From the NCBI RefSeq assembly GCF_900116565.1, contig NZ_FPCJ01000001.1, positions 1,918,540-1,982,539 of the forward strand: DNA of 64,000 nucleotides, written 5' to 3'. The position numbers and the translations under genes were made by a program. This DNA is from Thermoflavifilum thermophilum. GTDB lineage: Bacteria > Bacteroidota > Bacteroidia > Chitinophagales > Chitinophagaceae. This document shows, one piece after another, positions 3,315 to 35,040 of the stretch; the stretch's first letter is position 1, and every line of letters starts with the position of its first letter. The notes under the pieces are model-generated. The model was not told the DNA's origin. It did not search any database and saw nothing but the letters and a program-made list of their open reading frames with translations.

Positions 3315-4466
3315 ATGTCGTTTGTACCATCGCAGTATCGATTAGGCATTACGGCCGGAGGTCAACTGGGTAAAATGCTTGCACAGGCTGCCATTGCCTG
3401 GGATATTCCTGTGGTAGTGATGGACCCTGATCCGGCCTGTGCTGCCCGTCAGCTGGGAATGAAATTTCTGAAAGGCAATCCCCGTTTCAGGGAAGATTTA
3501 TTAAAGCTCAGAAAGGAAATCAACTTGCTGGCTCTCGAAATCGAACATGTATCCATTGAAGGGTTGCGTGATCTGCAAAGCGAGGGCATACGCATTATAC
3601 CCAATCCTGAATCGCTTGAACTCATCCAGGACAAAGGATTGCAGAAAAAACGGCTGGCAGAAAAAGGCATTCCTACCATGCCTTTTGTATTGCTGGATCA
3701 TGAACACGAGATCGTGGAAGCTGTGCAGCAGGGGCGCATTCAGCTGCCTTTTGTACAAAAAACGCGAAAGCTGGGTTATGATGGAAGAGGCGTGAAACGA
3801 GTCAACAGCATGGCTGATCTGTCAGACCTGCTTGCCGGCCCTTCTGTAATCGAACAGTTGTGTGATATTGAAAAAGAAATCAGCCTGATTGTGGCTGGGA
3901 ATCCGCAAGGTGAAACCTGTGTATATCCGCCGGTAGAGATGGTTTTCCATCCGGAAGCCAATCTCGTATCTTACTTGCTTTGCCCTGCCCGTCTGACAGC
4001 ATCTCAGGCCGAAGAAGCCAACCACATTGCCATAGAAACCTATCATGCTTTTAATCCCGGCGGGTTGTTGGCTGTGGAAATGTTTCTGGACAAACAGGGT
4101 AAATGCTGGGTCAATGAAGTGGCACCGCGGCCTCACAACAGCGGGCATCATACCATAGAAGCCTGTGCAACTTCCCAATATGAACAGCAGCTGAGATGTT
4201 TGCTGGGATTACCTTTGGGCAATACGGGGCTCATTAAGCCCGCGGCCATGGTCAATCTGTTAGGCGAACCGGGTTATTCCGGAATTCCCCGATATGAGGG
4301 TTTTGAGGAAGTGTTGAAACTACCCGAAGTATATGTGCATATTTATGGCAAGCAGCAAACCCGTCCGTTTCGGAAAATGGGACATGTGACCCTTTTGGGA
4401 AAAGATATTGAAGAACTCACGGAAAAAGTCGAACTTGTGAAACAAAAGCTGAAAGTAAAAGCATGA
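3315..4466 (+). CDS. purK: N5-carboxyaminoimidazole ribonucleotide synthase (PurK)
   Basis: This ATP-grasp enzyme uses ATP and bicarbonate to carboxylate 5-aminoimidazole ribonucleotide in de novo purine synthesis. The N-terminus has the family motif GITAGGQLGKML, followed by the ATP-grasp core (QKTRKLGYDGRGV, EQLCDIEKEISLIV) and the active-site stretch NEVAPRPHNSGHHTIEAC. About 383 residues is normal for PurK. A TTG at 3294 is also in frame, but the ATG at 3315 gives the usual N-terminus. Its stop overlaps the purE start by 4 bases (ATGA), so the two steps are probably translationally coupled. Confidence 0.96.
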   Translation: MSFVPSQYRLGITAGGQLGKMLAQAAIAWDIPVVVMDPDPACAARQLGMKFLKGNPRFREDLLKLRKEINLLALEIEHVSIEGLRDLQSEGIRIIPNPESLELIQDKGLQKKRLAEKGIPTMPFVLLDHEHEIVEAVQQGRIQLPFVQKTRKLGYDGRGVKRVNSMADLSDLLAGPSVIEQLCDIEKEISLIVAGNPQGETCVYPPVEMVFHPEANLVSYLLCPARLTASQAEEANHIAIETYHAFNPGGLLAVEMFLDKQGKCWVNEVAPRPHNSGHHTIEACATSQYEQQLRCLLGLPLGNTGLIKPAAMVNLLGEPGYSGIPRYEGFEEVLKLPEVYVHIYGKQQTRPFRKMGHVTLLGKDIEELTEKVELVKQKLKVKA

Positions 4467-4981
4467 ACAAGCCCCTGGTAAGTATTATTATGGGATCGGA
4501 CTCTGACTGGGCCATTATGCAGCAGGCAGCCGAGATGCTGCAGCATTTTGGAATTGCGTATGAAGCCGATATTGTCTCAGCCCACCGTACGCCCGAGAAA
4601 ATGTTTGCATTTGCCCGAACAGCGCATGAAAGAGGCATTCGCGTGATAATTGCCGGTGCGGGCGGTGCGGCTCATTTACCTGGTATGGTGGCCGCCATTT
4701 CTCCTTTGCCGGTGATTGGAGTGCCAGTAAAATCAGCTCTTTCGCTCGACGGGTGGGATTCCGTGCTATCCATTCTACAAATGCCGGCAGGCGTACCGGT
4801 TGCTACGGTAGCCCTGAACAATGCACGCAATGCAGGAATTCTGGCTGCACAAATTCTGGCCTGTCACGACGGGGAAATGCTTCGGAAAATTCAGGAATAC
4901 AAAATCCGCCTTCAGCAAGAGGTCGAACAAAAATCCATCCAGCTGCAAACAAGGCTCCATTCGCCATCTCAGCAGCTCTAA
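4463..4981 (+). CDS. purE: N5-carboxyaminoimidazole ribonucleotide mutase (PurE)
   Basis: PurE moves the carboxyl group made by PurK from N5 to C4, giving 4-carboxy-AIR in purine synthesis. The class I PurE signature is complete: MGSDSDWAIM near the start, SAHRTPEKM near residue 40, and GAGGAAHLPGMVA. About 172 residues is normal. It follows purK with a 4-base overlap, as in many bacteria. The last 20 residues are polar and helical and look non-catalytic. Confidence 0.97.
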   Translation: MNKPLVSIIMGSDSDWAIMQQAAEMLQHFGIAYEADIVSAHRTPEKMFAFARTAHERGIRVIIAGAGGAAHLPGMVAAISPLPVIGVPVKSALSLDGWDSVLSILQMPAGVPVATVALNNARNAGILAAQILACHDGEMLRKIQEYKIRLQQEVEQKSIQLQTRLHSPSQQL

Positions 4982-5189
4982 GAAAAGTTGTGGCTCATGC
5001 GGAAAGTGAAATTTTGTGATTTGGAAAATTGAAAATTTCCTAACTTGGGGCACTTAAAAAAGCATTTCTCCCAGGATAAAATCACATATTTTATTGGAAT
5101 TCAATTTAAATCAGCAATTGGGTGTATGGGGGTGGCAATGTTCGAATACAGGATTGCAGGCAAAAACAAGAGAAATTTTTATGAAAACA

Positions 5190-6231: not shown

Positions 6232-6903
6232 ATGCCTAAAGTAAAGCTGCCCAGAAAGAGTACAGCAATTGATATGACACCGATGGTGGATGTGGCATTT
6301 CTGCTGCTCACCTTCTTCATGTTAACCACCAAATTCAAGCCTAATGATCCGGTGACGGTGGTTACACCCTCATCTATCTCCACTAAACTGTTGCCTGAAT
6401 CAAACATTGTTATGATTTTGATCGGTAAAGATGGCCGGGTGTTTTTTGATCTGGACAATAAGTTTAAAAAGCAGCAGTTGATGAGTGATTTCAACAGCCA
6501 GTACCATCTGGGCCTAACAAAAGATCAGATTAACTCCTATGCAATAGGCGGTCCTGTGGGTGTGCCATTTAAAATGTTACCGCAATTGTTAAACGTTCCT
6601 GCTGATCAGCGAAATGCATTTCCGCAACCGGGTATTCCGATTGATTCAGCTAATAATGAACTGGATCAATGGATCAAATACACGCTGAATGTAAATAATG
6701 GCAACCCCGATCTTCAATTCGTCATCAAAGCCGATGATAATACCAAGTATGAAGTGGTGAAGCAGGTATTAAAAACCTTGAAGGCGAATCATTTGAATAA
6801 ATTGCATCTGGTGACGAATCTAAAGCCGATTCCGCCCGGCACGGCTGCCTGGCGTGAACAACAGGCTGCAGGTGGTGCAAATGCATCCAAAAAGCAACCA
6901 TAA
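6232..6903 (+). CDS. exbD: ExbD/TolR family biopolymer transport protein (first copy)
   Basis: ExbD is the partner of ExbB in the TonB motor and carries the protonatable aspartate in its single transmembrane helix. The motif IDMTPMVDVAFLLLTFFML (about residues 14-32) contains that aspartate. The periplasmic part runs to 223 residues, with about 50 extra residues (GGPVGVPFKML region) compared with the second copy. It lies between exbB and a second exbD. Confidence 0.93.
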   Translation: MPKVKLPRKSTAIDMTPMVDVAFLLLTFFMLTTKFKPNDPVTVVTPSSISTKLLPESNIVMILIGKDGRVFFDLDNKFKKQQLMSDFNSQYHLGLTKDQINSYAIGGPVGVPFKMLPQLLNVPADQRNAFPQPGIPIDSANNELDQWIKYTLNVNNGNPDLQFVIKADDNTKYEVVKQVLKTLKANHLNKLHLVTNLKPIPPGTAAWREQQAAGGANASKKQP

Positions 6904-6945
6904 TTCAATTTTATTAGTTTGATGTGTATCTAAAATCATGTTGCT

Positions 6946-7527
6946 ATGGCTGATGTAGAAATGAAAGAGCCTGGTGGGGGGCGACATCAGGGGACGAAAA
7001 GTAAAAAGCTATCTACCCGTATTGATATGACACCTATGGTGGACGTAGCTTTCCTCCTGATTACCTTTTTCATGCTCACCACTACGCTCCAGAAGCCCAA
7101 AACCATGAATCTGTACCTCCCGGAAGATGTAAAAAATCCGGAAGAACAAAATAAAGTGAAGGAAAGTCAAGCGTTGACCATTATTTTGGGCAAAGATCAT
7201 CAGGTGTATTATTACTACGGCACGGGTCAGGAACCCAATGAAAGAATGTACAAAACCACTTTTGCCAACAAAGGTGGGATCCGGGATGTGATCATCAACA
7301 AATGGGATAATGTAATTAAGAACTCAGGAGGTCGTGATAGCCTGGTAGCTATCATAAAACCTATGAATGATGCAGATTATGAAGATGTGGTGAATATTCT
7401 GGACGAGATGAACATCAACGGTGTCCAAAAGTATGCTTTGGTTGACAGTATTTATGATTTTGAGAAAAATCTGATGAAAGAAGCAGATGATCACCCGGTG
7501 GCCGATCCTACTTTAAACGGTCAGTAA
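6946..7527 (+). CDS. exbD: ExbD/TolR family biopolymer transport protein (second copy)
   Basis: This is the second ExbD of the operon, 193 residues, with the motif RIDMTPMVDVAFLLITFFML near residues 25-44 and a periplasmic domain ending in a typical mixed alpha/beta fold. A charged cytoplasmic N-terminus precedes the helix. Tandem ExbD genes are common in Bacteroidetes. The two copies are only modestly similar outside the helix, so they may form a hetero-oligomer. Confidence 0.93.
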   Translation: MADVEMKEPGGGRHQGTKSKKLSTRIDMTPMVDVAFLLITFFMLTTTLQKPKTMNLYLPEDVKNPEEQNKVKESQALTIILGKDHQVYYYYGTGQEPNERMYKTTFANKGGIRDVIINKWDNVIKNSGGRDSLVAIIKPMNDADYEDVVNILDEMNINGVQKYALVDSIYDFEKNLMKEADDHPVADPTLNGQ

Positions 7528-7569
7528 AGGGAAGCGATTAGTCTGTGAATCATCATAAAAGATTTTATT

Positions 7570-8415
7570 ATGAATCCGAAAGAATTATTGACAGCTGATT
7601 TTCTGGACATCCTGTTTGAAGGGAGGAATAAGGCCTATGGCGCATATGATTTACGGGTTACGTATCCGAAACGGGTTCGTAATGCGCTGATAGGGATGAT
7701 TATTTTCATTCTTCTTTCCCTTCTATTGTATGGTTTCGAACTATACATGCAAAAACAGGAAAGTCTGCATCCCAAACCTAAAATTGCGGATGTGAAGCTC
7801 ACGGAAGTGAAGCTACCCAATAAGAACGAGCCACCCCCTCCTCCTCCGCCTCCTCCACCGCCACAGGAAATAAAGTTTAAGTCGGCTGTTAAATTCACGC
7901 CGCCTAAGGTGGTGAAAGATGAGGACGTGAAGCCGGAAGAATTACCGCCCGATATTTCTCAGATTCAGAACAAGGTGATCAGTACTCGTAACATCAAAGG
8001 TGATCCTAACGGGATAGATCCGAACCTTGTGCAGTCCAGTTCGGGTACCGGCGTAACGGCAGCACCGAAAGAAGACAATCGGGTGTTTCAGTTTGTGGAA
8101 CAAATGCCCCGCTTCCCTGGCTCTATCAACGATGATGATAGCCAGCAGAAGATCATGGAATATCTGAGAAATCATATCCAGTATCCTCCTGTGGCTCGTG
8201 ATAATGGCATTCAGGGAACGGTAACGGTGATGTTTGTGGTATGGTCTGATGGTACCATTCGTGATGTGCATACCGTTGGTCCCCACCTGGGCGGAGGCTT
8301 GGAAGAGGAAGCCATCCGGGTGATAAAATCCATGCCCCGATGGATTCCGGGTCGGCAAAACGGCCGGGCTGTGAATGTGCAGTTCACCATCCCCGTTCGG
8401 TTTGTATTGCAGTAA
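7570..8415 (+). CDS. tonB: Energy transducer TonB
   Basis: TonB spans the periplasm and passes proton-motive energy from ExbB/ExbD to outer-membrane receptors. Order of parts in 281 residues: cytoplasmic N-terminus with LLTADFLDILFEGRNKAYGAYDLR, transmembrane helix near 38-60, a proline run of 11 residues near 92-102, and a C-terminal TonB domain (PPVARDNGIQGTVTVMFVV, VIKSMPRWIPGR, NVQFTIPVRF). It is the last gene of the operon and is followed by a strong terminator. Confidence 0.95.
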   Translation: MNPKELLTADFLDILFEGRNKAYGAYDLRVTYPKRVRNALIGMIIFILLSLLLYGFELYMQKQESLHPKPKIADVKLTEVKLPNKNEPPPPPPPPPPPQEIKFKSAVKFTPPKVVKDEDVKPEELPPDISQIQNKVISTRNIKGDPNGIDPNLVQSSSGTGVTAAPKEDNRVFQFVEQMPRFPGSINDDDSQQKIMEYLRNHIQYPPVARDNGIQGTVTVMFVVWSDGTIRDVHTVGPHLGGGLEEEAIRVIKSMPRWIPGRQNGRAVNVQFTIPVRFVLQ

Positions 8416-8432
8416 GGCAACTCATCGTCATA

Positions 8433-8470
8433 AAAAATCCCGGCATGATGTACATGTCGGGATTTTTATT
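8433..8470 (+). terminator. Rho-independent terminator after tonB
   Basis: AAAATCCCGGCATG pairs with CATGTCGGGATTTT around a short loop, then TATTTTC follows. It closes the exb-tonB operon just before mnmE. Confidence 0.85.
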
Positions 8471-8502
8471 TTCAAACACCTGAAAATCCCTATCATTGCT
8501 GT

Positions 8503-9873
8503 ATGTATTACCAGCATGCAGAAGACACCATTGCTGCTCCCGCTACACCGCAAGGCATGGGTGCCATAGCAGTTATTCGCGTCAGCGGTCCGCAAGCGCT
8601 AAGCATTGTGAACCGGTTGTTTCCCGCCAAAGATCTCACACAGGTACCCTCGCATACCCTGCATGTCGGCAAACTCATCTGGAAAAGTCAATGGTTAGAT
8701 GAAGTGGTGGTGAGTGTGTTCAAAGCGCCCCGCTCCTATACAGGAGAAGATGTGATCGAAATATCCTCACACGGATCGCCCCTGATTGTGCAACGCATCC
8801 TGCAGGCCCTCACGGAAGCTGGTGCTCGTATGGCCCTGCCGGGTGAGTTTACACTCCGGGCATATCTGCACGGCAAAATGGATCTCACGCAGGCTGAAGC
8901 GGTGGCCGATCTGATTGCAGCTGAATCGGAGGCTGCTGTGCAAAATGCGCTCCGCCACATCCGGGGAGGTTTTTCGGCCGAGCTGCAACAGCTCAGAAAT
9001 CAACTTTTACAGTTTGCTGCACTCATTGAATTAGAACTCGACTTCTCTGAGGAAGATGTGGAATTTGCAGATAGACATGCATTGAAACAATTGCTGGATC
9101 ATATTGATGAACACGTGCAAAAACTCTTGCAATCGTATGCCTGGGGCAACGTGGTGAAACATGGCTTTCAGGTGGTCATTGCCGGTAAGCCCAATGTGGG
9201 GAAAAGTACCTTGCTGAATGCTTTGCTGAATGAGAACAGGGCCATTGTGAGCGATATCCCCGGCACTACACGCGATACGGTGGAAGAATTCATTCAATTA
9301 AATGGCTTGCTGTTTCGGCTGATTGACACGGCCGGCCTGCGTGTCAGTGAAGATGTAATAGAACAAATCGGCGTGGCGCGAACGCATGAAAAAATTTTGC
9401 AAGCCGATATGATCTTATATTTGTTTGATGTTACCCAAATCGAAGCATCAGAATGGGAGCAGGCATTCGCATGGTTGCAGGGGTTGAAGAAACCTTATTT
9501 GATTTTAATCAATAAAATTGATCTGCAATCTGAGCTTCCTGAATTTGTGCACAATACACCCCAAACCATGATGATATCTGCACAAAAGCAGGTGCATTTA
9601 AATGAACTGAAAGAAAAACTTGTGGAAATAGCCCAGCAAGGTCGAACGCATGGTGAAGGCAGTATTATTACCAATGCGCGGCATTATGCGGCACTGCAAA
9701 AAGTCAAACAAGGCATACAGGATGTGTATGCGGGACTGGAGAAAAATATATCCAATGATTTGCTTGCCAATGACATTCGCAAGTGTTTGCATGATTTAGG
9801 CGAAATTACCGGCGAAGTCACCACAGAAGATATGCTGGACTATATCTTTTCGCATTTCTGTATTGGGAAATGA
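8503..9873 (+). CDS. mnmE: tRNA uridine-5-carboxymethylaminomethyl(34) synthesis GTPase MnmE
   Basis: MnmE works with MnmG to modify the wobble uridine of certain tRNAs. The 456 residues show the folate-binding N-terminal domain (TIAAPATPQGMGAIAVIRVSG), a helical domain, and an inserted GTPase domain with GKPNVGKST (G1), DIPGTTRDTVEE (G2), DTAGLR (G3) and NKID (G4). The C-terminus ends in FCIGK, the conserved cysteine motif. It looks complete and is the last core gene before the accessory region. Confidence 0.97.
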   Translation: MYYQHAEDTIAAPATPQGMGAIAVIRVSGPQALSIVNRLFPAKDLTQVPSHTLHVGKLIWKSQWLDEVVVSVFKAPRSYTGEDVIEISSHGSPLIVQRILQALTEAGARMALPGEFTLRAYLHGKMDLTQAEAVADLIAAESEAAVQNALRHIRGGFSAELQQLRNQLLQFAALIELELDFSEEDVEFADRHALKQLLDHIDEHVQKLLQSYAWGNVVKHGFQVVIAGKPNVGKSTLLNALLNENRAIVSDIPGTTRDTVEEFIQLNGLLFRLIDTAGLRVSEDVIEQIGVARTHEKILQADMILYLFDVTQIEASEWEQAFAWLQGLKKPYLILINKIDLQSELPEFVHNTPQTMMISAQKQVHLNELKEKLVEIAQQGRTHGEGSIITNARHYAALQKVKQGIQDVYAGLEKNISNDLLANDIRKCLHDLGEITGEVTTEDMLDYIFSHFCIGK

Positions 9874-14016: not shown

Positions 14017-14138
14017 ATGCTAATGTTTATACAGCATTTACAAGGACAAGAGAAAATGTAATAATTCTAAATTCAAATAAAAGATATAATTCTTTTTGTG
14101 ATTAATTTCCTAAAAAATGGAACGAACAATAAAAACGA

Positions 14139-14274
14139 CTACTAACAAGATGTTGCTAAAAGCGGGACTGGAGAGTTTCAATTGGACATTTTTGCAGAGT
14201 TTAACTTTCATGATTTGATTGAACTCTTGTGCTAAAAATGCCACACCTTCGGCTAGCTGCAAACCTTTAAATGC
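14139..14274 (+). repeat. attC-like element
   Basis: The element starts with ACTACTAAC, has the left arm TTGCTAAAAGCGGGACTG, a central region with TTTTTGCAGAG and CTCTTGTGCTAAAAA, and the right arm ATGCCACACCTTCGGCTAGCTGCAAACC. It ends with the degenerate core TTTAAATGC. Length and right-arm sequence (CTTCGG.TAGC.GCAAACC) match the element at 29623-29758. Confidence 0.55.
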
Positions 14275-14955: not shown

Positions 14956-15090
14956 AGTAACTAACATCGTATTGGCAGTAGAGGCACTGAAAACTTTAAA
15001 TTCATCATTTGTAATTCTATCAGAGATTTGTGTAATTTTTTTGAAGTTTTTCAGTTTCCTCACGATCCCCAATACTCTAACTCCTGGCGG
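14956..15090 (+). repeat. attC-like element
   Basis: Homologous to the element at 26264-26400: both have AACATCGTATTGGCA(A/G)TAG at the left, ACTTTAAATTCATCATTTGTAATTC or close variants in the middle, and CCCCAATACTC or CGCCAATACG at the right. The left ATCGTATTGG pairs with the right CCAATACT. It marks the end of the cassette with the 14299-14946 gene and the left limit of the restriction operon. Confidence 0.6.
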
Positions 15091-24688: not shown

Positions 24689-25586
24689 TCAGCAAATAGG
24701 CAAATCATCCAGTGGATTATGAAGTTTTTCGACAGCAGATTTACTGACCTGTGTATAAATCTGTGTGGTTTTTATATGGTTATGACCCAATAATACCTGA
24801 ATAATGCGAATATCCGTACCGCTTTTCAACAAATGAGTGGCATACGAATGCCGCAACGAATGCACGGTGGCGTCTTTTTGAACACCTGCTTTTTTCAAAG
24901 CATCTTTAAAAATATTCTGAACGCTTCGTGAAGAATACGTTCCTCCTTTTTGTCCTTCAAACAAATAATGTTTTGTTCTATAAGTCTTCCAATATTCTCT
25001 GAGCAGTTGCAATAAATTTTTTGATATAGATACGTATCGGTCTTTATTCCCCTTTGATTGCGATATTTTTATGAGCATTCGCTGCGAGTCAATATCCTTT
25101 ATAGTAGGATTTAAGCATTCGGATAACCTTAATCCCGCACTGTAAATCGTTGCCATTATGGCTTTGTGTTTTACATTATTACAGGATTGAATGATTTTCT
25201 GTACTTCTTCTTTGGATAAAACAACAGGCAATCTGTGTTCCCTGCGACCGGGATATAAATACTTCAGTTGATAATTTTTACGATACATTTCGTTGTACAA
25301 GAACTGAATGGCAGCCACCAAAGTTTTTTGATAAGATGCGGAGATATTTTTTTTGATTAATTTTAATATGCATAAAGCTTTCAATTTCGTGGATTGAGAT
25401 ATTTTCCGGGTGTTTGTCGGGAAAAGCATTTAAGAAAACAGATAGCGCATTTTTGTAAGAGCGAATAGAAGAAACAGCATACCGTTTAATTTCCATAAGT
25501 TTCGTAAAATCTTCTAAAATTTCTGTTTTCCGCCAAATTGCGTCATGTTGTATTATTTTAGGAGTTTTCCCGCCATAAATATACAA
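24689..25586 (-). pseudogene. Tyrosine recombinase, integron-type integrase, one-base frameshift
   Basis: The C-terminal frame (to 24689) has the full catalytic set: R in AGLRLSE, K in SKGNKDR, HSLRHSYATH, LLGH and Y in TQIYTQV, and ends with NPLDDLP, similar to the SPLD-L ending of integron integrases. The N-terminal frame (from 25586 TTG or 25496 ATG) encodes the SAM-like core-binding domain (RYAVSSIRSYKNALSVFLNA). The two frames join if one A is removed from an A8 tract near 25351-25358. No extra IntI-specific segment is seen between the K and HxxR boxes. It diverges from the cassette array and abuts attI. Confidence 0.75.
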
Positions 25587-25622
25587 AAAAGAAATATATT
25601 GCGTATATTTGCACGTTGTCGG
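25526..25622 (+). repeat. attI-like site and divergent promoter region
   Basis: The region covers the 5' end of the recombinase gene and the spacer up to GTTGTCGG (25615-25622), where the first cassette after the integrase begins. About 87 bases are repeated at 27132-27218, both ending at a cassette boundary. This places the insertion point between G25615 and T25616 or close to it. Confidence 0.6.
25604..25611 (+). promoter_or_regulatory. Putative cassette promoter -7 element
   Basis: TATATTTG fits TAnnTTTG and points into the cassette array, 4 bases before the attI point, in the place where integrons carry their Pc promoter. No convincing -33 element. In the copy at 27207-27214 the last base is A, which should weaken it. 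Confidence 0.4.
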
Positions 25623-25760
25623 TCATTGTAATGGACAGTCCAAACGGCATTAACCAATGACACAAAGACAATGAAAAATGGCGGACAGTCTAAGGAATTA
25701 ACAAAATGGCAAAATTCGAAATACCAACATTATAAGCAATAAATTTACAGACAATCAACA

Positions 25761-26255
25761 ATGAATATCCTTTCTAAAATTGGACTTTTACTTTTTACGA
25801 TTTCACTGATTGCTTTTGCAATTTCATTGGGTGGAATACTATATCAACATATAGTCGAATTTCCTAATTGGAAAAAAGATATTTCCAACTCACTACGCTC
25901 CTACAGGACATTCTTCAAATATTCAAACTTTGGTAACTTTTTTAAAATATTTATGCCAATATCATCTGCTTGCTTGCTCATTGCTATCTTTTTGCTTTGG
26001 AATAAACCAACAGAAGCCAATAAGTGGACACTTGGTGCTATGACAGGGCTTATCTTGACAGCAAGTTTTACAAACTATTACTTTGTACCAAAACATACCA
26101 AACTATTTTCAGACGAAATAGCTGAAACAAATGTTTCCGAATTGGCAGCATTGGTAACGAAGTGGGGAAAGGGGAACTTAATAAGAATTGCAATTATGAC
26201 TTTAACTCTAATCTGTTTTTTAAAAGGGTATCAAACAATTTTTACAAACCAATAA
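25761..26255 (+). CDS. Four-helix membrane protein, DUF1772-like (cassette gene)
   Basis: A 164-residue protein with four predicted membrane helices (about 5-28, 60-80, 88-108 and 138-158) and an YQHIVEFPNWKK motif after the first helix. The layout resembles DUF1772/anthrone-oxygenase-like proteins, but the match is weak. It is the first gene after attI, with a long 140-base leader. The cassette ends in the attC-like element at 26264. Confidence 0.65.
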   Translation: MNILSKIGLLLFTISLIAFAISLGGILYQHIVEFPNWKKDISNSLRSYRTFFKYSNFGNFFKIFMPISSACLLIAIFLLWNKPTEANKWTLGAMTGLILTASFTNYYFVPKHTKLFSDEIAETNVSELAALVTKWGKGNLIRIAIMTLTLICFLKGYQTIFTNQ

Positions 26256-26263
26256 ACAACGAA

Positions 26264-26400
26264 CCGCCAACATCGTATTGGCAATAGTGGGGCTGACAGT
26301 TTTAAACTCAACATTTGTAATTCTATCGGACATTTGTGCAAATGTTGGGCTGACGTTTTTCAAAAGCCCCACCATCGCCAATACGTAAACCGCTATGCCC
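26264..26400 (+). repeat. attC-like element
   Basis: Starts CCGCCAAC, reverse complement of the cassette start GTTGTCGG (25615) at 7 of 8 bases. Arms ATCGTATTGGCAATAGTGGGGCT and AGCCCCACCATCGCCAATACG pair almost completely. Ends at GCTATGCCC (26392-26400), start of the next cassette. Confidence 0.75.
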
Positions 26401-26474
26401 AAGCGTAGGACGATATGACCGAAATCATATAGCGACACTTATGAAATAATAGCTTTGACAAAAAATAAAAAATT

Positions 26475-26951
26475 ATGAAAAAAATAAACGCAATTGGACT
26501 GGACAGCACCAAGTCCAAACATTTAGCAGACAAGTTGAATGACCTTTTGGCAAACTATTCCATTTTTTACCAAAACACCAGAGGCTATCATTGGAATATC
26601 AAGGGAGAAAAGTTTTTTGAACTTCATTTAAAGTTTGAGGAGCTGTATAATGACCTGCTTTTAAAAATTGACGAGATTGCGGAAAGAATATTGACCTTGG
26701 GACACTCTCCCAATCATAAATATTCTGACTACAAGAAAGTTTCCAAAATTGCTGAAAGTAATCAGGTTTTGGACGGACTGAAAGCTGTAGCTGACATTCT
26801 TAACTCATTACAGACAGTTATTAGTTTACAAAGAGAATTACTTGCTCTATCCGCAGACGCTGGGGACGAAGGAACTAATGCACTAATGAGTGACTATATC
26901 CGAGCACAAGAAAAATTGGTTTGGATGTATTCAGCATTTCTTAACAAATAA
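26475..26951 (+). CDS. Dps family ferritin-like protein (cassette gene)
   Basis: Dps proteins form 12-subunit shells that oxidise and store iron and protect DNA from oxidative damage. The 158 residues have the ferroxidase-site pattern RGYHWNIKG (His near 39), FEELYNDLLLKIDEIAER (Asp and Glu near 58-70) and a four-helix bundle. The short N-terminus lacks a long basic tail. It fills one cassette between the elements at 26264 and 27004. Confidence 0.9.
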   Translation: MKKINAIGLDSTKSKHLADKLNDLLANYSIFYQNTRGYHWNIKGEKFFELHLKFEELYNDLLLKIDEIAERILTLGHSPNHKYSDYKKVSKIAESNQVLDGLKAVADILNSLQTVISLQRELLALSADAGDEGTNALMSDYIRAQEKLVWMYSAFLNK

Positions 26952-27003
26952 TTCTTTGTTATCAACCGACAAAGATGCGGACTGATAGAAGGACAAAACG
27001 CCT

Positions 27004-27131
27004 GGGCATAACACGGGTTTTGCGTCAGGCGGGGTGACGTGTAAACTTGAAGATTTGTGCTTCTAATGAACTTTATTAATAAATTGGAACTTTGTGCTCC
27101 GAAACCCGCCCGAACGCGAAGCCGGAAACCA
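27004..27131 (+). repeat. attC-like element
   Basis: Starts GGGCATAAC, matching the reverse complement of the cassette start GCTATGCCC (26392) at 8 of 9 bases. Left arm GGGTTTTGCGTCAGGCGGG and right arm CCCGCCCGAACGCGAAGCC pair. The middle (AATAAATTGGAACTTTGTGC) is nearly identical to the elements at 31839 and 34797. The usual R' core is replaced by the attI copy that follows. Confidence 0.75.
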
Positions 27132-27226
27132 TTTTCCGCCAAATTGCGTCATGTTGTATTTTAGGAGTTTGCCCGCCATATATATACAAAAAAGAAATAT
27201 ATTCCGTATATTTACGCATTATGCGG
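27132..27226 (+). repeat. Second attI-like copy with a fragment of the recombinase 5' end
   Basis: About 87 bases repeat 25526-25612, including codons for YGGxTPKxIQHDAIWRK on the minus strand. Differences are few: a 3-base in-frame deletion and several substitutions. It ends at ATTATGCGG (27218-27226), the start of the next cassette. No recombinase follows it; the remnant stops where the preceding attC begins. Confidence 0.7.
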
Positions 27227-27257
27227 CAACTTAAAAGACGACACCTAACAACGACAA

Positions 27258-27797
27258 ATGAAAAAAGTATATGGACTTTTAGTATTGGCAATTTGGACAT
27301 TTTTAGCGTGTAATAGCAGTGCTGACAAATCAGATTACCAGCAAAATCAGGAAAAGAAAATGGAACAAAGAATTAGCGTATTGACAATTGGAGCGGACGA
27401 CTTAAACGCAATGAAAAACTTCTATGGACAAGTTTTAGGTTGGACGACAGTAGCCGAGAACAAAGACATAGCATTTTATAAACTCAATGGGTTTTTATTG
27501 AGTATCTGCGACAGAAAAATGCTTGCTGACTTTATCGGGGTTGACCACAACGGACAAGGTTTTCGCTCCGTGACAATTGGCTACAATGTTGACAGCAAAG
27601 AAGAAGTATTAGAACTTTACAATCAACTGAAAGACAAAGTAAAAATTTTGAAAGAGCCGACAGAGCCACCATTTGGCGGACTTTTCTTTTACTTCGCTGA
27701 CATTGAAGGAAACATAATTGAAGTTGCTCAAAACCCATTTATTACGCTTGACAAAGACAAAAACGCAACTGACCACAAACCAATTGACCATTTGTAA
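27258..27797 (+). CDS. VOC-family (glyoxalase/bleomycin-resistance fold) lipoprotein (cassette gene)
   Basis: The N-terminus (MKKVYGLLVLAIWTFLAC) is a lipoprotein signal with Cys18 as the lipidation site. The remaining 160 residues form one VOC domain, with two beta-alpha-beta-beta-beta modules (MKNFYGQVLGWTTV, FYFADIEGNIIEVAQNPF). Metal-ligand positions are only partly conserved, so activity cannot be predicted. A periplasmic or membrane-anchored location is unusual for this fold. The leader TTAAAAGACGACACC matches other cassettes. Confidence 0.8.
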   Translation: MKKVYGLLVLAIWTFLACNSSADKSDYQQNQEKKMEQRISVLTIGADDLNAMKNFYGQVLGWTTVAENKDIAFYKLNGFLLSICDRKMLADFIGVDHNGQGFRSVTIGYNVDSKEEVLELYNQLKDKVKILKEPTEPPFGGLFFYFADIEGNIIEVAQNPFITLDKDKNATDHKPIDHL

Positions 27798-27833
27798 AAT
27801 GCACGAACTATGACCGAAGGACAAGAAAGCCGA

Positions 27834-27969
27834 CCGCATAACACGAGTTTTGCGTCAGGCGGGGCGACGTGCTTCGCAGACACTTTTGTGCAAGGTGGAA
27901 ATTCAGATCTCCGAATGAAGTTTAGTGCTAAAACTCCCCGCCATCGCAAATCTCCGAAACGTTGTGTGC
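27834..27969 (+). repeat. attC-like element
   Basis: Starts CCGCATAAC, the reverse complement of the cassette start TTATGCGG (27219) without mismatch. Left arm GAGTTTTGCGTCAGGCGGGG pairs with CCCCGCCATCGCAAATCTC. Ends at GTTGTGTGC (27961-27969). Confidence 0.8.
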
Positions 27970-28040
27970 AACCCTATTGAGACAGCTTAATCATTAGACT
28001 TAAGAGATTTGAACAAACAGAAAAGCAACTATAACGACAA

Positions 28041-29588
28041 ATGCAGACATCGGACTTTCTTACAATATTAGGTTTAGCTATTCCTGTTTGGGCAATAATT
28101 CCCAGTAAAGAAAGACGATTCATTTTACTTTTCTTTTCAAGGTTTGAACTCGGTATTTTGATAGCATCTCTTTTCCTAATTCATTACTTGATGTCATTTG
28201 ACTGGCTAATGGCTAACTGGTTTCCGTGCCTGTCTATTTTTACAATTGACAAAGGGCTACCAAGTCCAACCTGGGCTTACATTCTATCTCTAACTATTAT
28301 TTTCTATCCTATCATCAAAGTTAGTTTCGGTTACTTTTCTCCGAGCCGTTTAAAAAACACGATTTTACTTTATGAAACTTATTTGAAAGAAAATGAGATT
28401 GACCTTTTAGTGAACTACATAAGCAAGTACCACATTGATGACATCAAAAAATATCTTCAAGGGATTTCACACCTTCCACAAAAAGAAAGCATTGACATAA
28501 TATTGAGAAGAAGAACCGATAAAGACAAAGCATACGAAAAATTAGTAAAGCCTCAGAGAATTTTATTTGCTTCTTGGGTTTATAGGCATATAATTCAAAA
28601 CGAAAATTTTATTCGCAAGTCAGCAAACAAATACCTTGAACTTTTTGCAACTCCTTTTAGTGGAATGGAAACCAAAGAATCTTCAAACGAAGACCTTGTT
28701 AAACTTTTTATTGAATGCTTATTTGAAAACAAGAACCAATTGTTCATTCAAGAATTAAAAATCATGAATGGGACGAATTCATCGGTTTTAGAAATGAACG
28801 TGAATTATGACATCCCAATTTTGTTTTCACTATTTGCACATACGAAAGCGGCAGCAGACAATTATGTTTGGTATCCTGTTGGCGAGGGAGCAGTTAAGTC
28901 ACTGAAACATGACACAGAACAAAAGGAATTTTTAATAAGGAAGTATGACCACGATTTAGAATCTGAACTTTGGAGTCAAAAAATATACATCGCTATTGTT
29001 TACTTCAACTATATGGTAAGAGAAACTATTTACCGTAATAGCGAGTGTCACATGTGGTTATTTTATTTCAGACACTTTACTGATCTTCTAATTGAAATCA
29101 TTCCAACACCAAATGATTATGACGGAGATTCAGAATACCCATCGTTTGCTCACAAAATGATTTACGAACAATTCTCTATAATGACTGACTGGCTTGATTT
29201 GGCAAAAGAACAAGAGACAGACAATCGTGTCATTGATACTATCAGATGTTTGGGTTGGTGTGTACATTCTATCTGTCAGGCTGACAACTCAAAAATTTCT
29301 GTACGATTTAGAAGGAGACTACTTGACTTATTGCTTTCTACCTATTTTGAATTTTCTCATTATCCTGACAACATTGCTGCAACAACAGCACGGCAATGGT
29401 TAGAGAGAATGTTTTTAAATCCAAAAGGCGTTGACTTCGGAACGCCAATTATAACGACAGAGTACTTATTTGCTTTACAAGACGCTTGGGATGAATTTGA
29501 CAAAGTTCCATATCAATACTATGAGGACAATGGTTCTATTCAACATTTCGTAACGACAGTATTAACACCTCTTGGGCTAAACGAATAA
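28041..29588 (+). CDS. Large membrane-anchored protein of unknown function (cassette gene)
   Basis: A 515-residue protein with two to three N-terminal membrane helices (about 8-24, 33-60 and 78-100) and a long, mostly helical cytoplasmic part. I recognise no family, catalytic motif or Walker box. It is by far the largest gene in the array; its cassette is about 1.8 kb and is bounded by complementary cores (GTTGTGTGC, GCATACAAC). The gene is intact with AT-rich codon use. Membrane anchoring plus a helical effector-like domain would suit an abortive-infection protein, but that is speculation. Confidence 0.75.
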   Translation: MQTSDFLTILGLAIPVWAIIPSKERRFILLFFSRFELGILIASLFLIHYLMSFDWLMANWFPCLSIFTIDKGLPSPTWAYILSLTIIFYPIIKVSFGYFSPSRLKNTILLYETYLKENEIDLLVNYISKYHIDDIKKYLQGISHLPQKESIDIILRRRTDKDKAYEKLVKPQRILFASWVYRHIIQNENFIRKSANKYLELFATPFSGMETKESSNEDLVKLFIECLFENKNQLFIQELKIMNGTNSSVLEMNVNYDIPILFSLFAHTKAAADNYVWYPVGEGAVKSLKHDTEQKEFLIRKYDHDLESELWSQKIYIAIVYFNYMVRETIYRNSECHMWLFYFRHFTDLLIEIIPTPNDYDGDSEYPSFAHKMIYEQFSIMTDWLDLAKEQETDNRVIDTIRCLGWCVHSICQADNSKISVRFRRRLLDLLLSTYFEFSHYPDNIAATTARQWLERMFLNPKGVDFGTPIITTEYLFALQDAWDEFDKVPYQYYEDNGSIQHFVTTVLTPLGLNE

Positions 29589-29622
29589 TTTAATGACAAC
29601 CAATCAATTAAATAGAAGGGTA

Positions 29623-29758
29623 GCATACAACAGCACCTACCCAAAAGTGGCGGTTCAGTGGTTAAATCAAGCTTTGTGCTCCTATAAAACTTTTGTGCAG
29701 GTTGACAGTGAAGTGCTCCGAAATCGCCACCTTCGGGTAGCCGCAAACCGTTGGCTGC
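29623..29758 (+). repeat. attC-like element
   Basis: Starts GCATACAAC, reverse complement of the cassette start GTTGTGTGC at 8 of 9 bases. The left CTACCCAAAAGTGGCGG pairs with CGCCACCTTCGGGTAG. Ends at GTTGGCTGC (29750-29758). Confidence 0.8.
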
Positions 29759-29776
29759 AATTTTTAAACTAAAACT

Positions 29777-30418
29777 ATGGCACTACCAGAACAATACCTT
29801 GTAACTACAAAAAACCTCAGCGCTTTTTTCAATTCTTTAGTTAATGCACAACCTCCTGCAAAATTCACAAATAAATTTTTGGAGCAACTGGAATTCAAGA
29901 GCACAAACGACCGACTCTACATTGGAGTCTTGAAAGCTTTGAAATTTGTTGACGCAAACGGAGTACCGCAAGAAAGATATTTTAGATTTATAGACCAGAC
30001 ACAATCTAAGCAAGTATTAGCAGAAGCGATAAAAGATGCATACTCTGACCTATTTGCTGTGAATAAGAAAGCAAATGAAATGATTGCCGCAGAAGTGAAG
30101 AACAAATTAAGGACTCTATTTCAGGGAGCAAAAACTGACAATGTTCTTACATGGATGGCTAATACCTTTCATGCTTTGTGTAACTATGCTGATTTTTCTC
30201 AAACTTCACAATCAAGAGAAATCCTCACTATTAAAAATGACGAGCCACAGGTTGAAGAAATGAAAGATGGTCAAGCATCAGAAAAGATGACACATGAGTT
30301 GATTAGCAAAAAGATTACGACAGAAATGCACTATAATATTCAAATCCATTTTCCAGAAACCAGAGATATTACAGTTTACGATGCAATTTTCAAAAGTTTA
30401 AAAGAGCATCTATTATGA
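29777..30418 (+). CDS. DUF5343 family protein (cassette gene)
   Basis: The 213 residues match the DUF5343 pattern in memory: YLVTTKNLSAFFNSLVNAQPP, FKSTNDRLYIGVLKALKFVD, RYFRFIDQTQSKQVLAEAI and YSDLF. The N-terminal 130 residues resemble two winged-helix-like parts; the C-terminus has a beta-strand pattern (HYNIQIHFPE). No enzyme motif is seen. It overlaps the following HEPN gene by 4 bases, so the two are co-translated and probably act together. Confidence 0.75.
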   Translation: MALPEQYLVTTKNLSAFFNSLVNAQPPAKFTNKFLEQLEFKSTNDRLYIGVLKALKFVDANGVPQERYFRFIDQTQSKQVLAEAIKDAYSDLFAVNKKANEMIAAEVKNKLRTLFQGAKTDNVLTWMANTFHALCNYADFSQTSQSREILTIKNDEPQVEEMKDGQASEKMTHELISKKITTEMHYNIQIHFPETRDITVYDAIFKSLKEHLL

Positions 30419-30993
30419 ACAGTGACAAGCTATATTCTTTTGTTTTCAAAGGGTTATTAACAGAAGAAGCCCTTGACAAAACAGACCGTATAAAGAAATC
30501 AAAAGTAACTAACGAGCAATTCAAGAAAATACATGACTCATTAAGCATTGATGAGCTTGATGATGAGTTAGTGATTCAGGCTCAAAAAATGGCTATTGTT
30601 TACACCGCAATCTGTGCTTTTGAAAATACCGTTAGGAAATTTATCTCTAAAAAGTTATTGGAAGTAAAAGGAGAAACTTGGTGGACAGTCGGTGTCTCAG
30701 ACAAAATACGAACCAAAGCGGAAAGTAGACGTGATGAGGAAAACAAAATTAGATGGCACACTCCTCGTGGTGACACAATCATTAACTATACAGAGTTTGG
30801 AGATTTAATTTCCATCATACGACAAAACTGGACAGAATTTGAGCCTCATATAATTTCAATTGAGTGGGCGGAAAACATCATAAAGACTTTAGAACGGAGC
30901 AGGAACGTTATTATGCACAGCGGTGAGTTGGTAAATCAGGACATAGAAAGAATTGGCATGTATATTAGAGATTGGGTAAATCAGGTCGGATAA
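30415..30993 (+). CDS. Swt1-type HEPN domain protein, candidate RNase (cassette gene)
   Basis: The 192-residue protein has a C-terminal HEPN domain. Its segment SRNVIMHSGELVNQDIERIG contains Arg-x4-His (RNVIMH), the catalytic pattern of HEPN ribonucleases, and AICAFENTVRKFI is the first core helix. HEPN proteins act as toxins or defence RNases. The gene shares a cassette and a 4-base overlap with the DUF5343 gene, which might regulate it or recognise the trigger. The cassette end begins 3 bases after the stop. Confidence 0.78.
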   Translation: MNSDKLYSFVFKGLLTEEALDKTDRIKKSKVTNEQFKKIHDSLSIDELDDELVIQAQKMAIVYTAICAFENTVRKFISKKLLEVKGETWWTVGVSDKIRTKAESRRDEENKIRWHTPRGDTIINYTEFGDLISIIRQNWTEFEPHIISIEWAENIIKTLERSRNVIMHSGELVNQDIERIGMYIRDWVNQVG

Positions 30994-30995
30994 CT

Positions 30996-31200
30996 GCAGC
31001 CAACATTGGGTTTTGTGTAATAGTGGGGAGACGGAATGCAGCATCAACTTTTGGTTCACTAATCATCTTCGGCTTCGGCTGACCGAATGTAGATGAACTA
31101 CAGTAGTAAACATCAACAAAAACAACTATTTTCAACTTCATTTTGGGGCTTGACGGAACACGGAATACCGCTCCTGCACAAAGCCCTGTTCGTTAGCGGT
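30996..31200 (+). repeat. attC-like element (long form)
   Basis: Starts GCAGCCAAC, the perfect reverse complement of GTTGGCTGC at 29750. Left arm AACATTGGGTTTTGTGTAATAGTGGGG; the right side has GGGGCTTGACGG, AATACCGCTCCTGCACAAAGCCC. Ends at GTTAGCGGT (31192-31200). At about 205 nt it is longer than the other elements and contains a CTTCGGCTTCGGCTGACC stretch. Confidence 0.75.
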
Positions 31201-31220
31201 AATTTTAAAACGACACGACA

Positions 31221-31433
31221 ATGACAAAATCATCAAATAAAAAACCAGCGAAAATGTGCTTCGGACACATCGGTGGAAAACTTGGAAAAATGCTTATGGA
31301 AACATTTGTTGACAAGGGTTGGATAGAGAAAGATAACCCGACCGACAAGCATTTTTTCATTACTGACAAGGGACAAAAGGAATTTACAAAACTTGGATTA
31401 GACCTCTCACAAATAAAATCAGAAGAATTATGA
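31221..31433 (+). CDS. ArsR-type regulator C-terminal fragment (cassette gene)
   Basis: A 70-residue protein resembling the C-terminal part of some ArsR-family regulators: CFGHIGGKLGKMLMETFVDKGWI and HFFITDKGQKEFTKLGLDLSQI. The N-terminal winged-helix DNA-binding part is missing. The ATG has the cassette leader TTTTAAAACGACACGACA directly before it, so this short form may be what the cassette captured. It overlaps the next gene by 4 bases. Confidence 0.55.
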   Translation: MTKSSNKKPAKMCFGHIGGKLGKMLMETFVDKGWIEKDNPTDKHFFITDKGQKEFTKLGLDLSQIKSEEL

Positions 31434-31810
31434 CACCAATAAAAGACTACGATAATTTCTTTTTGCCTGCCGACAATTTAGACACCGCAAAAGACTTTTA
31501 TAAAAACACTCTCGGACTTGACATTAAATTTGATTTTTCCGAAAGAGGAATGGTTGCTTTCAAGGTTGACGACAATGAACCTGCGATTATTCTGCGTAAA
31601 GCAGACAACGCTAAACCTGCAATTTTATTCACAGTTGACAATGTGCGACAAGCATACGAGGAACTAAAACAAAAAGGTGTTGAGTTTTTAAGTGAGCCAT
31701 TTGAAATTATGACTGGACTTTCTGTTGAATTTACCGACCCATTTGGTAACAAATTCGGACTGACAGACTATTCAAAAATGCCTCATCTTCGTGGACAAAC
31801 TAAAACGTGA
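31430..31810 (+). CDS. VOC family protein (cassette gene)
   Basis: A 126-residue single-domain VOC protein with the repeats DNLDTAKDFYKNTLGLDIKF and DPFGNKFGLTDYSK. The C-terminal glutamate ligand position of glyoxalase I appears altered (FGLTDYS), so its function is unknown. It is translationally coupled to the preceding short regulator-like gene and fills the rest of that cassette. Confidence 0.82.
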   Translation: MTPIKDYDNFFLPADNLDTAKDFYKNTLGLDIKFDFSERGMVAFKVDDNEPAIILRKADNAKPAILFTVDNVRQAYEELKQKGVEFLSEPFEIMTGLSVEFTDPFGNKFGLTDYSKMPHLRGQTKT

Positions 31811-31838
31811 AAGACAATGACGAAAGACAGAACAACTA

Positions 31839-31973
31839 CCGCTAACAGCGGTTTTGCGTTATGGGGGCTGACGTGTAAACTTGGAGCTTTGTGCTTCTAT
31901 TAAACATAAGTAATAAATTGAAACTATGTGCTCCGAAACCCGCACGAACGCAAGGCGTGGGTGCGTTACCGGC
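31839..31973 (+). repeat. attC-like element
   Basis: Starts ACCGCTAAC (from 31838), the perfect reverse complement of GTTAGCGGT at 31192. Left arm GGTTTTGCGTTATGGGGGCTGACGTG; right arm CCGAAACCCGCACGAACGCAAGGC. Ends at GTTACCGGC (31965-31973). Nearly identical in its centre to 27004 and 34797. Confidence 0.82.
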
Positions 31974-32164
31974 AATCCTATGTAGACAGTGCTAAAATCA
32001 ACCGACAAGCCCCGACAAACCAAAACTGGACAATCATCCAAATAGACGGTTAACCTCGTTCTGCTTTTCCTAACCTAAATAATGGCTCACTGAAAAATAT
32101 TTTCAGAAATATTTGTTTGGTAACTTAAACTTACATATATTTATGTAACTTTTAAGTTACTCAT

Positions 32165-32640
32165 TATCCAAAAGGAAATTATACAAAAGTGGTTTTTCAG
32201 ACACAACAGCCAGGTGAAGTCTGGAAATGCCTTACCAAGCCCGAACTCATAGAATTGTGGCTGATGAAATCAGATTTTAAACCAGTTAAAGGTCAAAAGT
32301 TCACCTTCACTTTTGCACCGAAACCAGGTAGTAAATACGAAGGTATTGTTCAGTGTGAAGTATTAGAGGTAAAGCCATTTACCAAATTGTCTTATTCATG
32401 GAATGGCAGGACGCATGACAAAAGCAGAAACTTCAACTCAACTGTTGTATGGACAATTACTCCGAAAGATGGTGGAACAGAACTTCATTTACTGCACAAC
32501 GGGCTTGAAGTAATTGAAGATATTCTCAATCATACGGATGGTTGCCTTACTTCATAACTCATGGGATTCAATCGCCTGAAATGAACAAAGTAGCCGAAAT
32601 GAGAAAACAAATGATTGCTGATAACATCCAATCAAAATAA
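32165..32640 (+). pseudogene. AHSA1/SRPBCC-domain protein, frameshifted at both ends (cassette gene)
   Basis: The central frame (32189-32557) encodes VWKCLTKPELIELWL and the strands of an AHSA1-type START-like domain. The expected N-terminal strand (KEIIQK) is in another frame just upstream, and a plausible C-terminus (SPEMNKVAEMRKQMIADN) is in yet another frame up to 32640. Two single-base changes therefore break it. Upstream, GTAACTTAAAC and GTTACTTAAAAG-type inverted repeats near 32120-32160 look like an operator for a regulator that is no longer present. Confidence 0.6.
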
Positions 32641-32643
32641 TCC

Positions 32644-33078
32644 ATGACAAAGAAAAATCTTAGCTTATCAATAAGTGTTAATGCTTCGGCAAATGAAGCA
32701 ATAAAAAAAATAAGTCAGGTTAGCAAATGGTGGGCAAAAAAAGTTAAAGGTAAATCGGTTAAACTAAATGATAAATTTACGGTTGTTTTTGGCGAAACAT
32801 TTGTTGACTTTCAAATCACAGAGTTTGTTCCAAACAAAAAAGTAGTATGGTTAGTCACGGACTGTAATCTGCATTGGATAAATAACAAAAAGGAATGGAA
32901 CAATACTGAAGTGGTTTTTGAAATATCTTCAGTGAAAGGCAAAACAAAAATTGACTTCACTCACATTGGCTTAACCCCTGCCGCTGAATGTTACGAAGAT
33001 TGCAAAATTGGTTGGACAGAACACATTACAGATAGTTTGGTAAAATTCATTGAAAAAGGCAAGGGAAAACCACAGTAA
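32644..33078 (+). CDS. SRPBCC (AHSA1-like) domain protein (cassette gene)
   Basis: A 144-residue START/Bet v1-like fold protein: NASANEAIKKISQVSKWWAK at the N-terminus, alternating strands, and a long C-terminal helix (WTEHITDSLVKFIEKGKG). Members often bind hydrophobic ligands or act as co-chaperones. It shares a cassette with the broken relative just upstream, starting 4 bases after it. The start is the first ATG; no leader motif is seen. Confidence 0.8.
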   Translation: MTKKNLSLSISVNASANEAIKKISQVSKWWAKKVKGKSVKLNDKFTVVFGETFVDFQITEFVPNKKVVWLVTDCNLHWINNKKEWNNTEVVFEISSVKGKTKIDFTHIGLTPAAECYEDCKIGWTEHITDSLVKFIEKGKGKPQ

Positions 33079-33136
33079 TCTTGTAAACAGCCGACAGACA
33101 ATACCACTATTCGACCTTCATTTTGACAGAAGCGCA

Positions 33137-33270
33137 GCCGGTAACAAGGTATTGCCAAAAGCAAGGGTGACGGGCTTCAACGACACTTTTGTGCTTAACC
33201 GAGCTTTAGTATTTCAAATCAACAGTAGTGCTGAAATGCCCCCTTCGGCAATACCCAAATTGTTTGTGAC
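33137..33270 (+). repeat. attC-like element
   Basis: Starts GCCGGTAAC, the perfect reverse complement of GTTACCGGC at 31965. Left arm AAGGTATTGCCAAAAGCAAGGG pairs with CCCTTCGGCAATACC. Ends at GTTTGTGAC (33262-33270). Confidence 0.82.
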
Positions 33271-34796: not shown

Positions 34797-34920
34797 GCCT
34801 GGTAGCATGGGTTTTTCCGTCAGGCGGGCTGACGTGCAAACTTGGAGCTTTGTTCCCCTAATGAGCTTTAGTAATAAATTGAAATTTTTTGCTCCTAAAC
34901 ACCTCTAAACGCATAGCCGA
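34797..34920 (+). repeat. Last recognisable attC-like element
   Basis: Left arm GGGTTTTTCCGTCAGGCGGGCTGACGTG, centre AACTTGGAGCTTTGTTCC...AATAAATTGAAA, right GCTCCTAAACACCTCTAAACGC. It closely matches the elements at 27004 and 31839. The R'' core (CCTGGTAGC) has drifted and no longer matches GTTAGCAGC. The array cannot be followed beyond here. Confidence 0.7.
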
Positions 34921-35040
34921 TCCCTTTGTACTTCACGCAAAGAAAAAAGTTCTACCTCCAATCGCATAAAAAATGTTTTCTATCACAAAATAGAACAAAC
35001 AACTTGGCGTTTGTTGATACAACTTGCTGTAGAATCCCAA

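What the first reader, a model, noticed from the sequence alone, without database searches (positions are those of the whole stretch)
27132..27226. Second attI copy carrying a fragment of the integrase 5' end inside the array
About 87 bases of integrase start plus attI (25526-25612) reappear between the Dps cassette and the VOC lipoprotein cassette, again ending exactly at a cassette start. A 3-base deletion keeps the integrase codons in frame. Either two arrays fused, or the leader/attI module itself moves as a promoter-bearing unit.
Basis: seen in the sequence. Interest (0 to 1): 0.65.

Follow-up and report, generated by a model that had tools for sequence, protein, structure and literature searches.

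The report
Second attI inside an integron array
In a gene-collecting array of a Bacteroidota-type bacterium, the array's entry site and the first few codons of its enzyme gene appear a second time between two collected genes, most likely the scar of the enzyme joining two copies of the array; the array's enzyme also lacks the part thought to define such systems.

Summary
The copy is real. Window 27132-27218 (87 bp) repeats 25526-25615 (90 bp) at 93% identity. It runs from a conserved G|TTT inside the first codons of the integrase gene to the attI crossover. It sits exactly between the end of the Dps cassette's attC and the start of the VOC cassette. It has no attC of its own, so it is not a normal cassette, and it is the only nested attI seen in the related integrons I scanned. 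Its private changes suggest a decaying remnant. The best explanation is one integrase-type recombination between the Dps attC and the G|TTT secondary site in another copy of the same integron. The closest known objects are delta-attI-type cassettes of class 1 and 2 integrons. Following it up gave something larger: the array is a genuine attC array (covarying hairpins, cassette-boundary rule, conserved attI), but its integrase lacks the IntI-specific I2 domain. Such integrases lie beside attC arrays in many genomes of the same family, including a run of about 95 kb. No canonical IntI was found in the six genomes tested. All function is inferred.

The parts
24689..25546 (-). intI-like tyrosine recombinase gene of the array, disrupted by two small indels (near 25519-25523 and 25345-25352)
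   Evidence: PF00589 and Phage_int_SAM_4; frames compared with the intact L016 homologue; lacks the IntI additional domain
25526..25615 (+). original leader unit: first ~7 intI codons, upstream region and attI; crossover G25615|T25616; secondary G|TT at 25525|25526
   Evidence: alignment of seven copies, spacing 89-93 bp in every full-length unit
25616..26392 (+). cassette 1 (Anthrone_oxy/DUF1772-like membrane protein) with attC 26263-26392
   Evidence: start complementary to own R'' 7/9; attC CM 103 bits
26393..27131 (+). Dps cassette with attC 27003-27131; crossover reads A|TT instead of G|TT
   Evidence: Ferritin PF00210; start/R'' 8/9; attC CM 103 bits
27132..27218 (+). the finding: second, nested attI plus first integrase codons, 87 bp, crossover to crossover
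27219..27961 (+). VOC-family lipoprotein cassette with attC 27834-27961
   Evidence: Glyoxalase PF00903; start/R'' 8/9; attC CM 117 bits
27962..29750 (+). cassette with a 515-aa protein of unknown family, attC 29624-29750
29751..31192 (+). cassette DUF5343 + HEPN_Swt1, long attC 31000-31192
31193..31965 (+). cassette: 70-aa ORF + second VOC protein, attC 31838-31965
31966..33262 (+). cassette with two further ORFs (32189-32557 and 32644-33078), attC 33137-33262
34798..34929 (+). further attC, so the array continues to at least here
   Evidence: attC CM 42 bits, E 2e-7

Best explanation
The 87-bp element is a nested attI: the scar of an integrase-mediated fusion of two copies of the same (or a sister) integron. 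The folded attC at the end of the Dps cassette recombined with a secondary core site, CTG|TTT, about 90 bp inside the leader and first codons of another copy of the integrase gene. This joined [intI-attI-cassette1-Dps] to [intI 5' end-attI-VOC...]. The rest of the second intI was lost in the same event, or in an excision of the same kind. Shown: the repeat, its exact crossover-to-crossover bounds, the intact attC and cassette starts on both sides, and the conservation of the G|TTT. Inferred: that the integrase did it, that a second integron copy supplied the element, and that the copy is now a non-essential, decaying site.
For: The left edge falls exactly after the G of a GTT; only 19 GTT occur in the 924 bp intI-attI region, about 2% by chance. 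That G|TTT is present in all six other intI loci, 89-93 bp from the attI crossover. The left joint is exactly the attC_Dps crossover and the right joint exactly the attI crossover/VOC start. All 7 real cassettes obey the start/R'' complementarity rule (7-9 of 9 nt) and the module does not (5 of 9). Module-specific derived changes (3-nt deletion, T>G, A>T, G>C) against one own-specific change fit a relaxed copy. Integrases are documented to join attC to G|TT secondary sites (PMC10127599; PMC2426708), and delta-attI-type cassettes are documented and functional (PMC12901181). An intact paralogous integrase is present at C2:2293772.
Against: The secondary site GTTTTCC does not match the RRRY part of GTTRRRY. 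The Dps and module crossovers now read A|TT, which could block recombination; I assume later mutation. The donor copy is not found, and only one genome of this species is held, so the event cannot be polarised by an empty relative. The module's last 6 nt resemble the attI of L010 more than the neighbouring one. The window integrase is frameshifted, so a trans-acting or ancestral enzyme is needed.
Confidence: 0.62

Rival explanations
1. Two tandem or duplicated integrons were brought together by homologous or illegitimate recombination, and an ordinary deletion, not integrase-mediated, removed most of the second intI.
For: The genome has several intI/attI loci and remnants, so duplication and decay are common here.
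Against: Both ends of the element fall on predicted crossover points; a random deletion end has about a 2% chance of a GTT (19/924) and a further small chance of meeting the exact attC end.
Confidence: 0.22
2. The leader/attI is a mobile, promoter-bearing unit that travels like a mini-cassette.
For: It is bounded by crossover points on both sides, and attI carries a conserved TATATTTG/A resembling a Bacteroidota -7 element (the promoter reading is general knowledge).
Against: Found once in an array and never elsewhere in the related arrays scanned; other copies remain attached to intI sequence. No attC; fails the boundary rule. Changes are those of a decaying copy.
Confidence: 0.06
3. Selected second attI: a mid-array insertion point and promoter that lets the VOC cassette and those after it be expressed or replaced independently.
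For: The attI core motif CGTATATTTA is retained, and TTTA occurs in working-position attIs of relatives.
Against: Crossover base A instead of G on both flanking sites; private substitutions and a deletion in the module; no recurrence in relatives.
Confidence: 0.08
4. Assembly artefact.
For: Repeats can be misassembled (general knowledge; no tool result points to it).
Against: The two copies differ at several positions plus an indel, and the copy lies on a 2.85 Mb contig of a 2-contig genome.
Confidence: 0.02

Closest known systems
Delta-attI-type (unusual) gene cassettes of class 1 and 2 integrons, e.g. bla_OXA-10-delta-attI1-11, delta-attI2-238, attI1-delta-aacA4-attI1 (PMC12901181)
   Same: A piece of attI, from 14 nt to a 244-nt leader piece or a whole attI1, sits at an internal junction of an array and ends exactly at the crossover; shown there to recombine.
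   Different: There the attI piece replaces the attC of the preceding cassette. Here the Dps attC is complete and the attI piece plus ~7 integrase codons lies after it, ending at a G|TT inside intI. Here the integron is chromosomal and has an integrase without the I2 domain.
Integrase off-target / secondary-site (G|TT) recombination (PMC10127599; also discussed in PMC2426708)
   Same: Breakpoint at a GTT outside att sites, joined to an att site.
   Different: Here the secondary site is in an integrase gene of the same integron type, and the product is a nested attI.
Integrons with canonical IntI (VchIntIA, PDB 2A3V; class 1 IntI1)
   Same: Integrase gene, adjacent attI, array of gene cassettes with attC hairpins, cassette start complementary to R''.
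   Different: The integrase lacks about 42 residues corresponding to VchIntIA ~184-247 (the additional domain/I2 helix).
XerA / NF040815 'site-specific tyrosine recombinase/integron integrase'
   Same: Best NCBIfam hit of the window protein fragment, no I2 insertion.
   Different: Below the family cut-off (193 against 220 bits for the fragment), and it sits beside attC arrays.

Membership tests
Canonical integron (IntI class) | Integrase with the IntI-specific additional domain (I2 helix) | tested here: not met
   Alignment to VchIntIA skips residues 184-247; TIGR02249 below cut-off, profile gap 184-240; 12 homologues have no insertion
Canonical integron (IntI class) | attC sites: R''/L''-L'/R' hairpins | tested here: met
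   26 sites, 10 of 13 stem pairs with compensatory changes; CM hits to E 7e-28
Canonical integron (IntI class) | Cassette start complementary to its own R'' | tested here: met
   7 of 7 cassettes, 7-9 of 9 nt
Canonical integron (IntI class) | attI next to the integrase gene, with cassettes beginning at its crossover | tested here: met
   Window, L016, G186, G242, G183 and reverse-layout loci
Canonical integron (IntI class) | Demonstrated attI x attC recombination | not testable with these tools
   needs a recombination assay
Delta-attI-type unusual cassette | attI fragment ending at the crossover inside an array | tested here: met
   27132-27218 ends at A27218|T27219
Delta-attI-type unusual cassette | attI fragment replaces the attC of the preceding cassette | tested here: not met
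   The Dps attC is complete (CM positions 1-133)
Gene cassette | Own attC and start/R'' complementarity | tested here: not met
   Module: no attC, 5 of 9 at best

The most novel reading that the evidence does not exclude
The array belongs to a large, so far unrecognised class of integrons in a Bacteroidota family, run by an integrase that never acquired, or lost, the I2 domain held to be essential for folded attC sites. The class includes a run of about 95 kb of attC sites in G183 and two gene layouts (attI 5' or 3' of intI). The nested attI would be a record of this integrase's secondary-site activity.
Probability: 0.5. Interest if true: 0.82.

Novelty: new variant of a known kind. Interest (0 to 1): 0.55.

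Why it matters
The nested attI is a natural trace of which site an integrase uses off-target, and it gives a precise, testable junction. The context matters more. The I2 helix is described as the innovation that let integrases handle folded single-stranded attC sites. Here, genomes without any detectable I2-bearing integrase carry large, structurally covarying attC arrays next to an I2-less relative. If that enzyme moves cassettes, the accepted view of how integrases came to use attC can be tested directly. Surveys that require the I2 profile, as described for IntegronFinder, would overlook a widespread cassette reservoir.

Tried and rejected
A home-made hairpin scan for attC did no better than shuffled sequence, so it was dropped for a sequence profile and then a calibrated covariance model. 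Weak family-wide DNA matches to the module (L013-L015) are unrelated coding or intergenic chance matches. VOC gene homologues in G121 and G231 showed no attC nearby, so they do not tell what preceded the VOC cassette. I first took the module's TATATTTA as promoter loss, but attIs in relatives carry TTTA too, so that argument was withdrawn. I first looked only 5' of the integrases for arrays and saw few; the 3' sides hold them. L009 and L010 remnants show no cassette starting at their attI by the R'' rule.

Full report
What was checked. The window lies at G000:C2:1918540-1982539 of a 2.86 Mb, two-contig genome. The repeat is real: window 25526-25610 and 27132-27213 align with three substitutions and one 3-nt gap, 93% identity, E about 7e-30 in the genome search. 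When bounded by the recombination points the units are 25526-25615 (90 bp) and 27132-27218 (87 bp).

The array. Starting at the attI crossover G25615|T25616, the window carries cassettes 25616-26392 (membrane protein), 26393-27131 (Dps), 27219-27961 (VOC lipoprotein), 27962-29750 (515 aa, unknown family), 29751-31192 (DUF5343 + HEPN_Swt1), 31193-31965 (VOC) and 31966-33262, then further attC to at least 34929. For all seven cassettes the first nine bases after the crossover are complementary to the R'' of the same cassette's attC (7-9 of 9). The module gives 5 of 9 at best and has no attC, so it is not an ordinary cassette. The attC sites are genuine hairpins: in 26 aligned sites from several genomes, 10 of 13 predicted stem pairs are kept through changes on both sides.

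The module. It begins at a G|TTT that all six other copies of this integrase locus also have, 89-93 bp before the attI crossover. In intact homologues (L016; own paralogue L020/L050) this lies about 6-7 codons into the gene. The window start codon is therefore most likely at 25544-25546, so the module holds about 7 codons, the upstream leader and attI. Only 19 GTT occur in 924 bp of this region, so a random breakpoint would hit one about 2% of the time. The other side of the joint is the exact end of a complete Dps attC. At sites where the two copies differ, four events are private to the module (3-nt deletion, T>G, A>T, G>C), one is private to the original, and two near the crossover are shared with other loci of this genome. 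That fits a copy under relaxed constraint.

Mechanism. Integrases are known to join att sites to G|TT secondary sites (PMC10127599; discussed in PMC2426708). Recombination of attC_Dps on one integron copy with CTG|TTT in the intI of another copy directly produces intI-attI-cassette1-Dps-[intI 5' end-attI]-VOC. An equivalent route is tandem integrons followed by an excision of the same kind. The enzyme need not be the one in the window, which is frameshifted: an intact paralogue lies at C2:2293772. Inferred, not shown: the enzyme, the donor copy and the present lack of function. Both joints flanking the module read A|TT where G|TT is usual. This also occurs at the attI and first attC of the paralogous locus and at the L010 attI, so it is not specific to the module, and I have no firm explanation.

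Is it a travelling unit? The module DNA was sought in the own genome and in 296 genomes of the family: four places in the own genome, one in G186, and weak chance matches; L016 from a hot-spring MAG has one. Every copy but the finding is attached to intI or a remnant of it. The attI core CGTATATTT[G/A] occurs once per integron where it is found at all, at the attI, and never a second time inside roughly 330 kb of related arrays and flanks, including the long array of G183. Motif variants would be missed. The nested copy is therefore unique in what I could scan.

The wider context. The integrase's best solved relative is VchIntIA (2A3V), but the alignment jumps from residue 183 to 248 of VchIntIA across 21 residues of the query: the IntI additional domain with the I2 helix is missing. 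Twelve homologues show the same. No protein in G000, G015, G186, G115, G183 or G242 passes the integron-integrase cut-off. Yet attC sites lie in the expected place and orientation next to these enzymes. For the window-like layout (attI 5' of intI) this holds for the window, L016, G186, the own paralogue, G242 and G183. For a reverse layout (attI 150-280 bp 3' of intI) 12 of 18 fetched downstream regions contain attC, all 61 hits on the integrase's strand. G183 has about 45 attC, all on one strand, across some 95 kb of contig C8, and three more beside its integrase on C7; that C8 and C7 join is inferred. The eLife paper PMC7790495 describes I2 as the acquisition that enabled single-strand attC recombination. 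PMC9668308 treats the domain as defining for IntI and notes that IntegronFinder requires its profile. IntegronFinder 2.0 reports one complete integron in Bacteroidetes proper, Salinibacter ruber M1. My searches of the held open-access library found no report of this class, which is not proof of absence.

Comparison. The closest described objects are the delta-attI-type cassettes of class 1 and 2 integrons, which include a 244-nt attI2 leader piece and a full attI1 duplicate. The present element differs: the preceding attC is intact, integrase codons are included, and the left end is a G|TT in the integrase gene. By the stated membership test the host system is integron-like in attI, attC and cassette structure, but fails the IntI domain criterion. 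I therefore say it works like an integron and do not file its enzyme as a canonical IntI.

Verdict. The nested attI by itself is a modest variant of a known kind of rearrangement. The I2-less integron setting is the part that would surprise a specialist, and it needs an activity test before it is claimed.

Noticed in passing
G183 contigs C8:676-95150 and C7:2-12426 (L110-L114, L086): About 45 attC sites on one strand over ~95 kb, plus three attC and an I2-less integrase on C7; looks like a superintegron split between contigs.
   Followed up: partly
L116, L117, L118, L120, L122, L123, L125, L126, L129, L131, L132, L133: I2-less integrases with attC arrays 3' of the gene and on the same strand (reverse layout), often with a conserved attI motif 150-280 bp after the gene.
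   Followed up: partly
G000:C2:2293772-2294611 (L020, L050): Intact paralogous I2-less integrase with its own attI and attC; both of its crossover sites read A|TT instead of G|TT.
   Followed up: partly
window 27131|27132, 27218|27219; L010:7111|7112; L050: G>A at the recombination crossover occurs repeatedly in this genome (Dps attC, nested attI, two other attIs, one other attC), while relatives nearly always have G.
   Followed up: partly
window 14138-14271 and 14957-15088: Two more attC-like sites about 10 kb to the left of the integrase, outside the main array (CM 97 and 42 bits).
   Followed up: no
G000:C2:2840693 (L009) and C2:1523515 (L010, about 6-9 kb from a Cas9-like gene): Two decayed intI 5' remnants each followed by an attI-like end; a weak attC lies about 6.5 kb beyond the first (L115:3234-3365).
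   Followed up: partly
L135 (Acinetobacter baylyi pJAT2044), 2967-5117: A related integrase lies just upstream of tet(X3), and a partial attC-like site of this class (E 4e-7) lies directly downstream of it; the start/R'' rule was not met, so a cassette origin is only a lead.
   Followed up: partly
L134 (Flagellimonas marinaquae plasmid), 6870-9642: erm(F), a related integrase annotated xerA and an attC-like site (88 bits) next to a dihydrofolate reductase family gene lie together.
   Followed up: no
window 25345-25352 and 25519-25523: Both indels that break the window integrase lie in T-runs, so sequencing error cannot be excluded.
   Followed up: no
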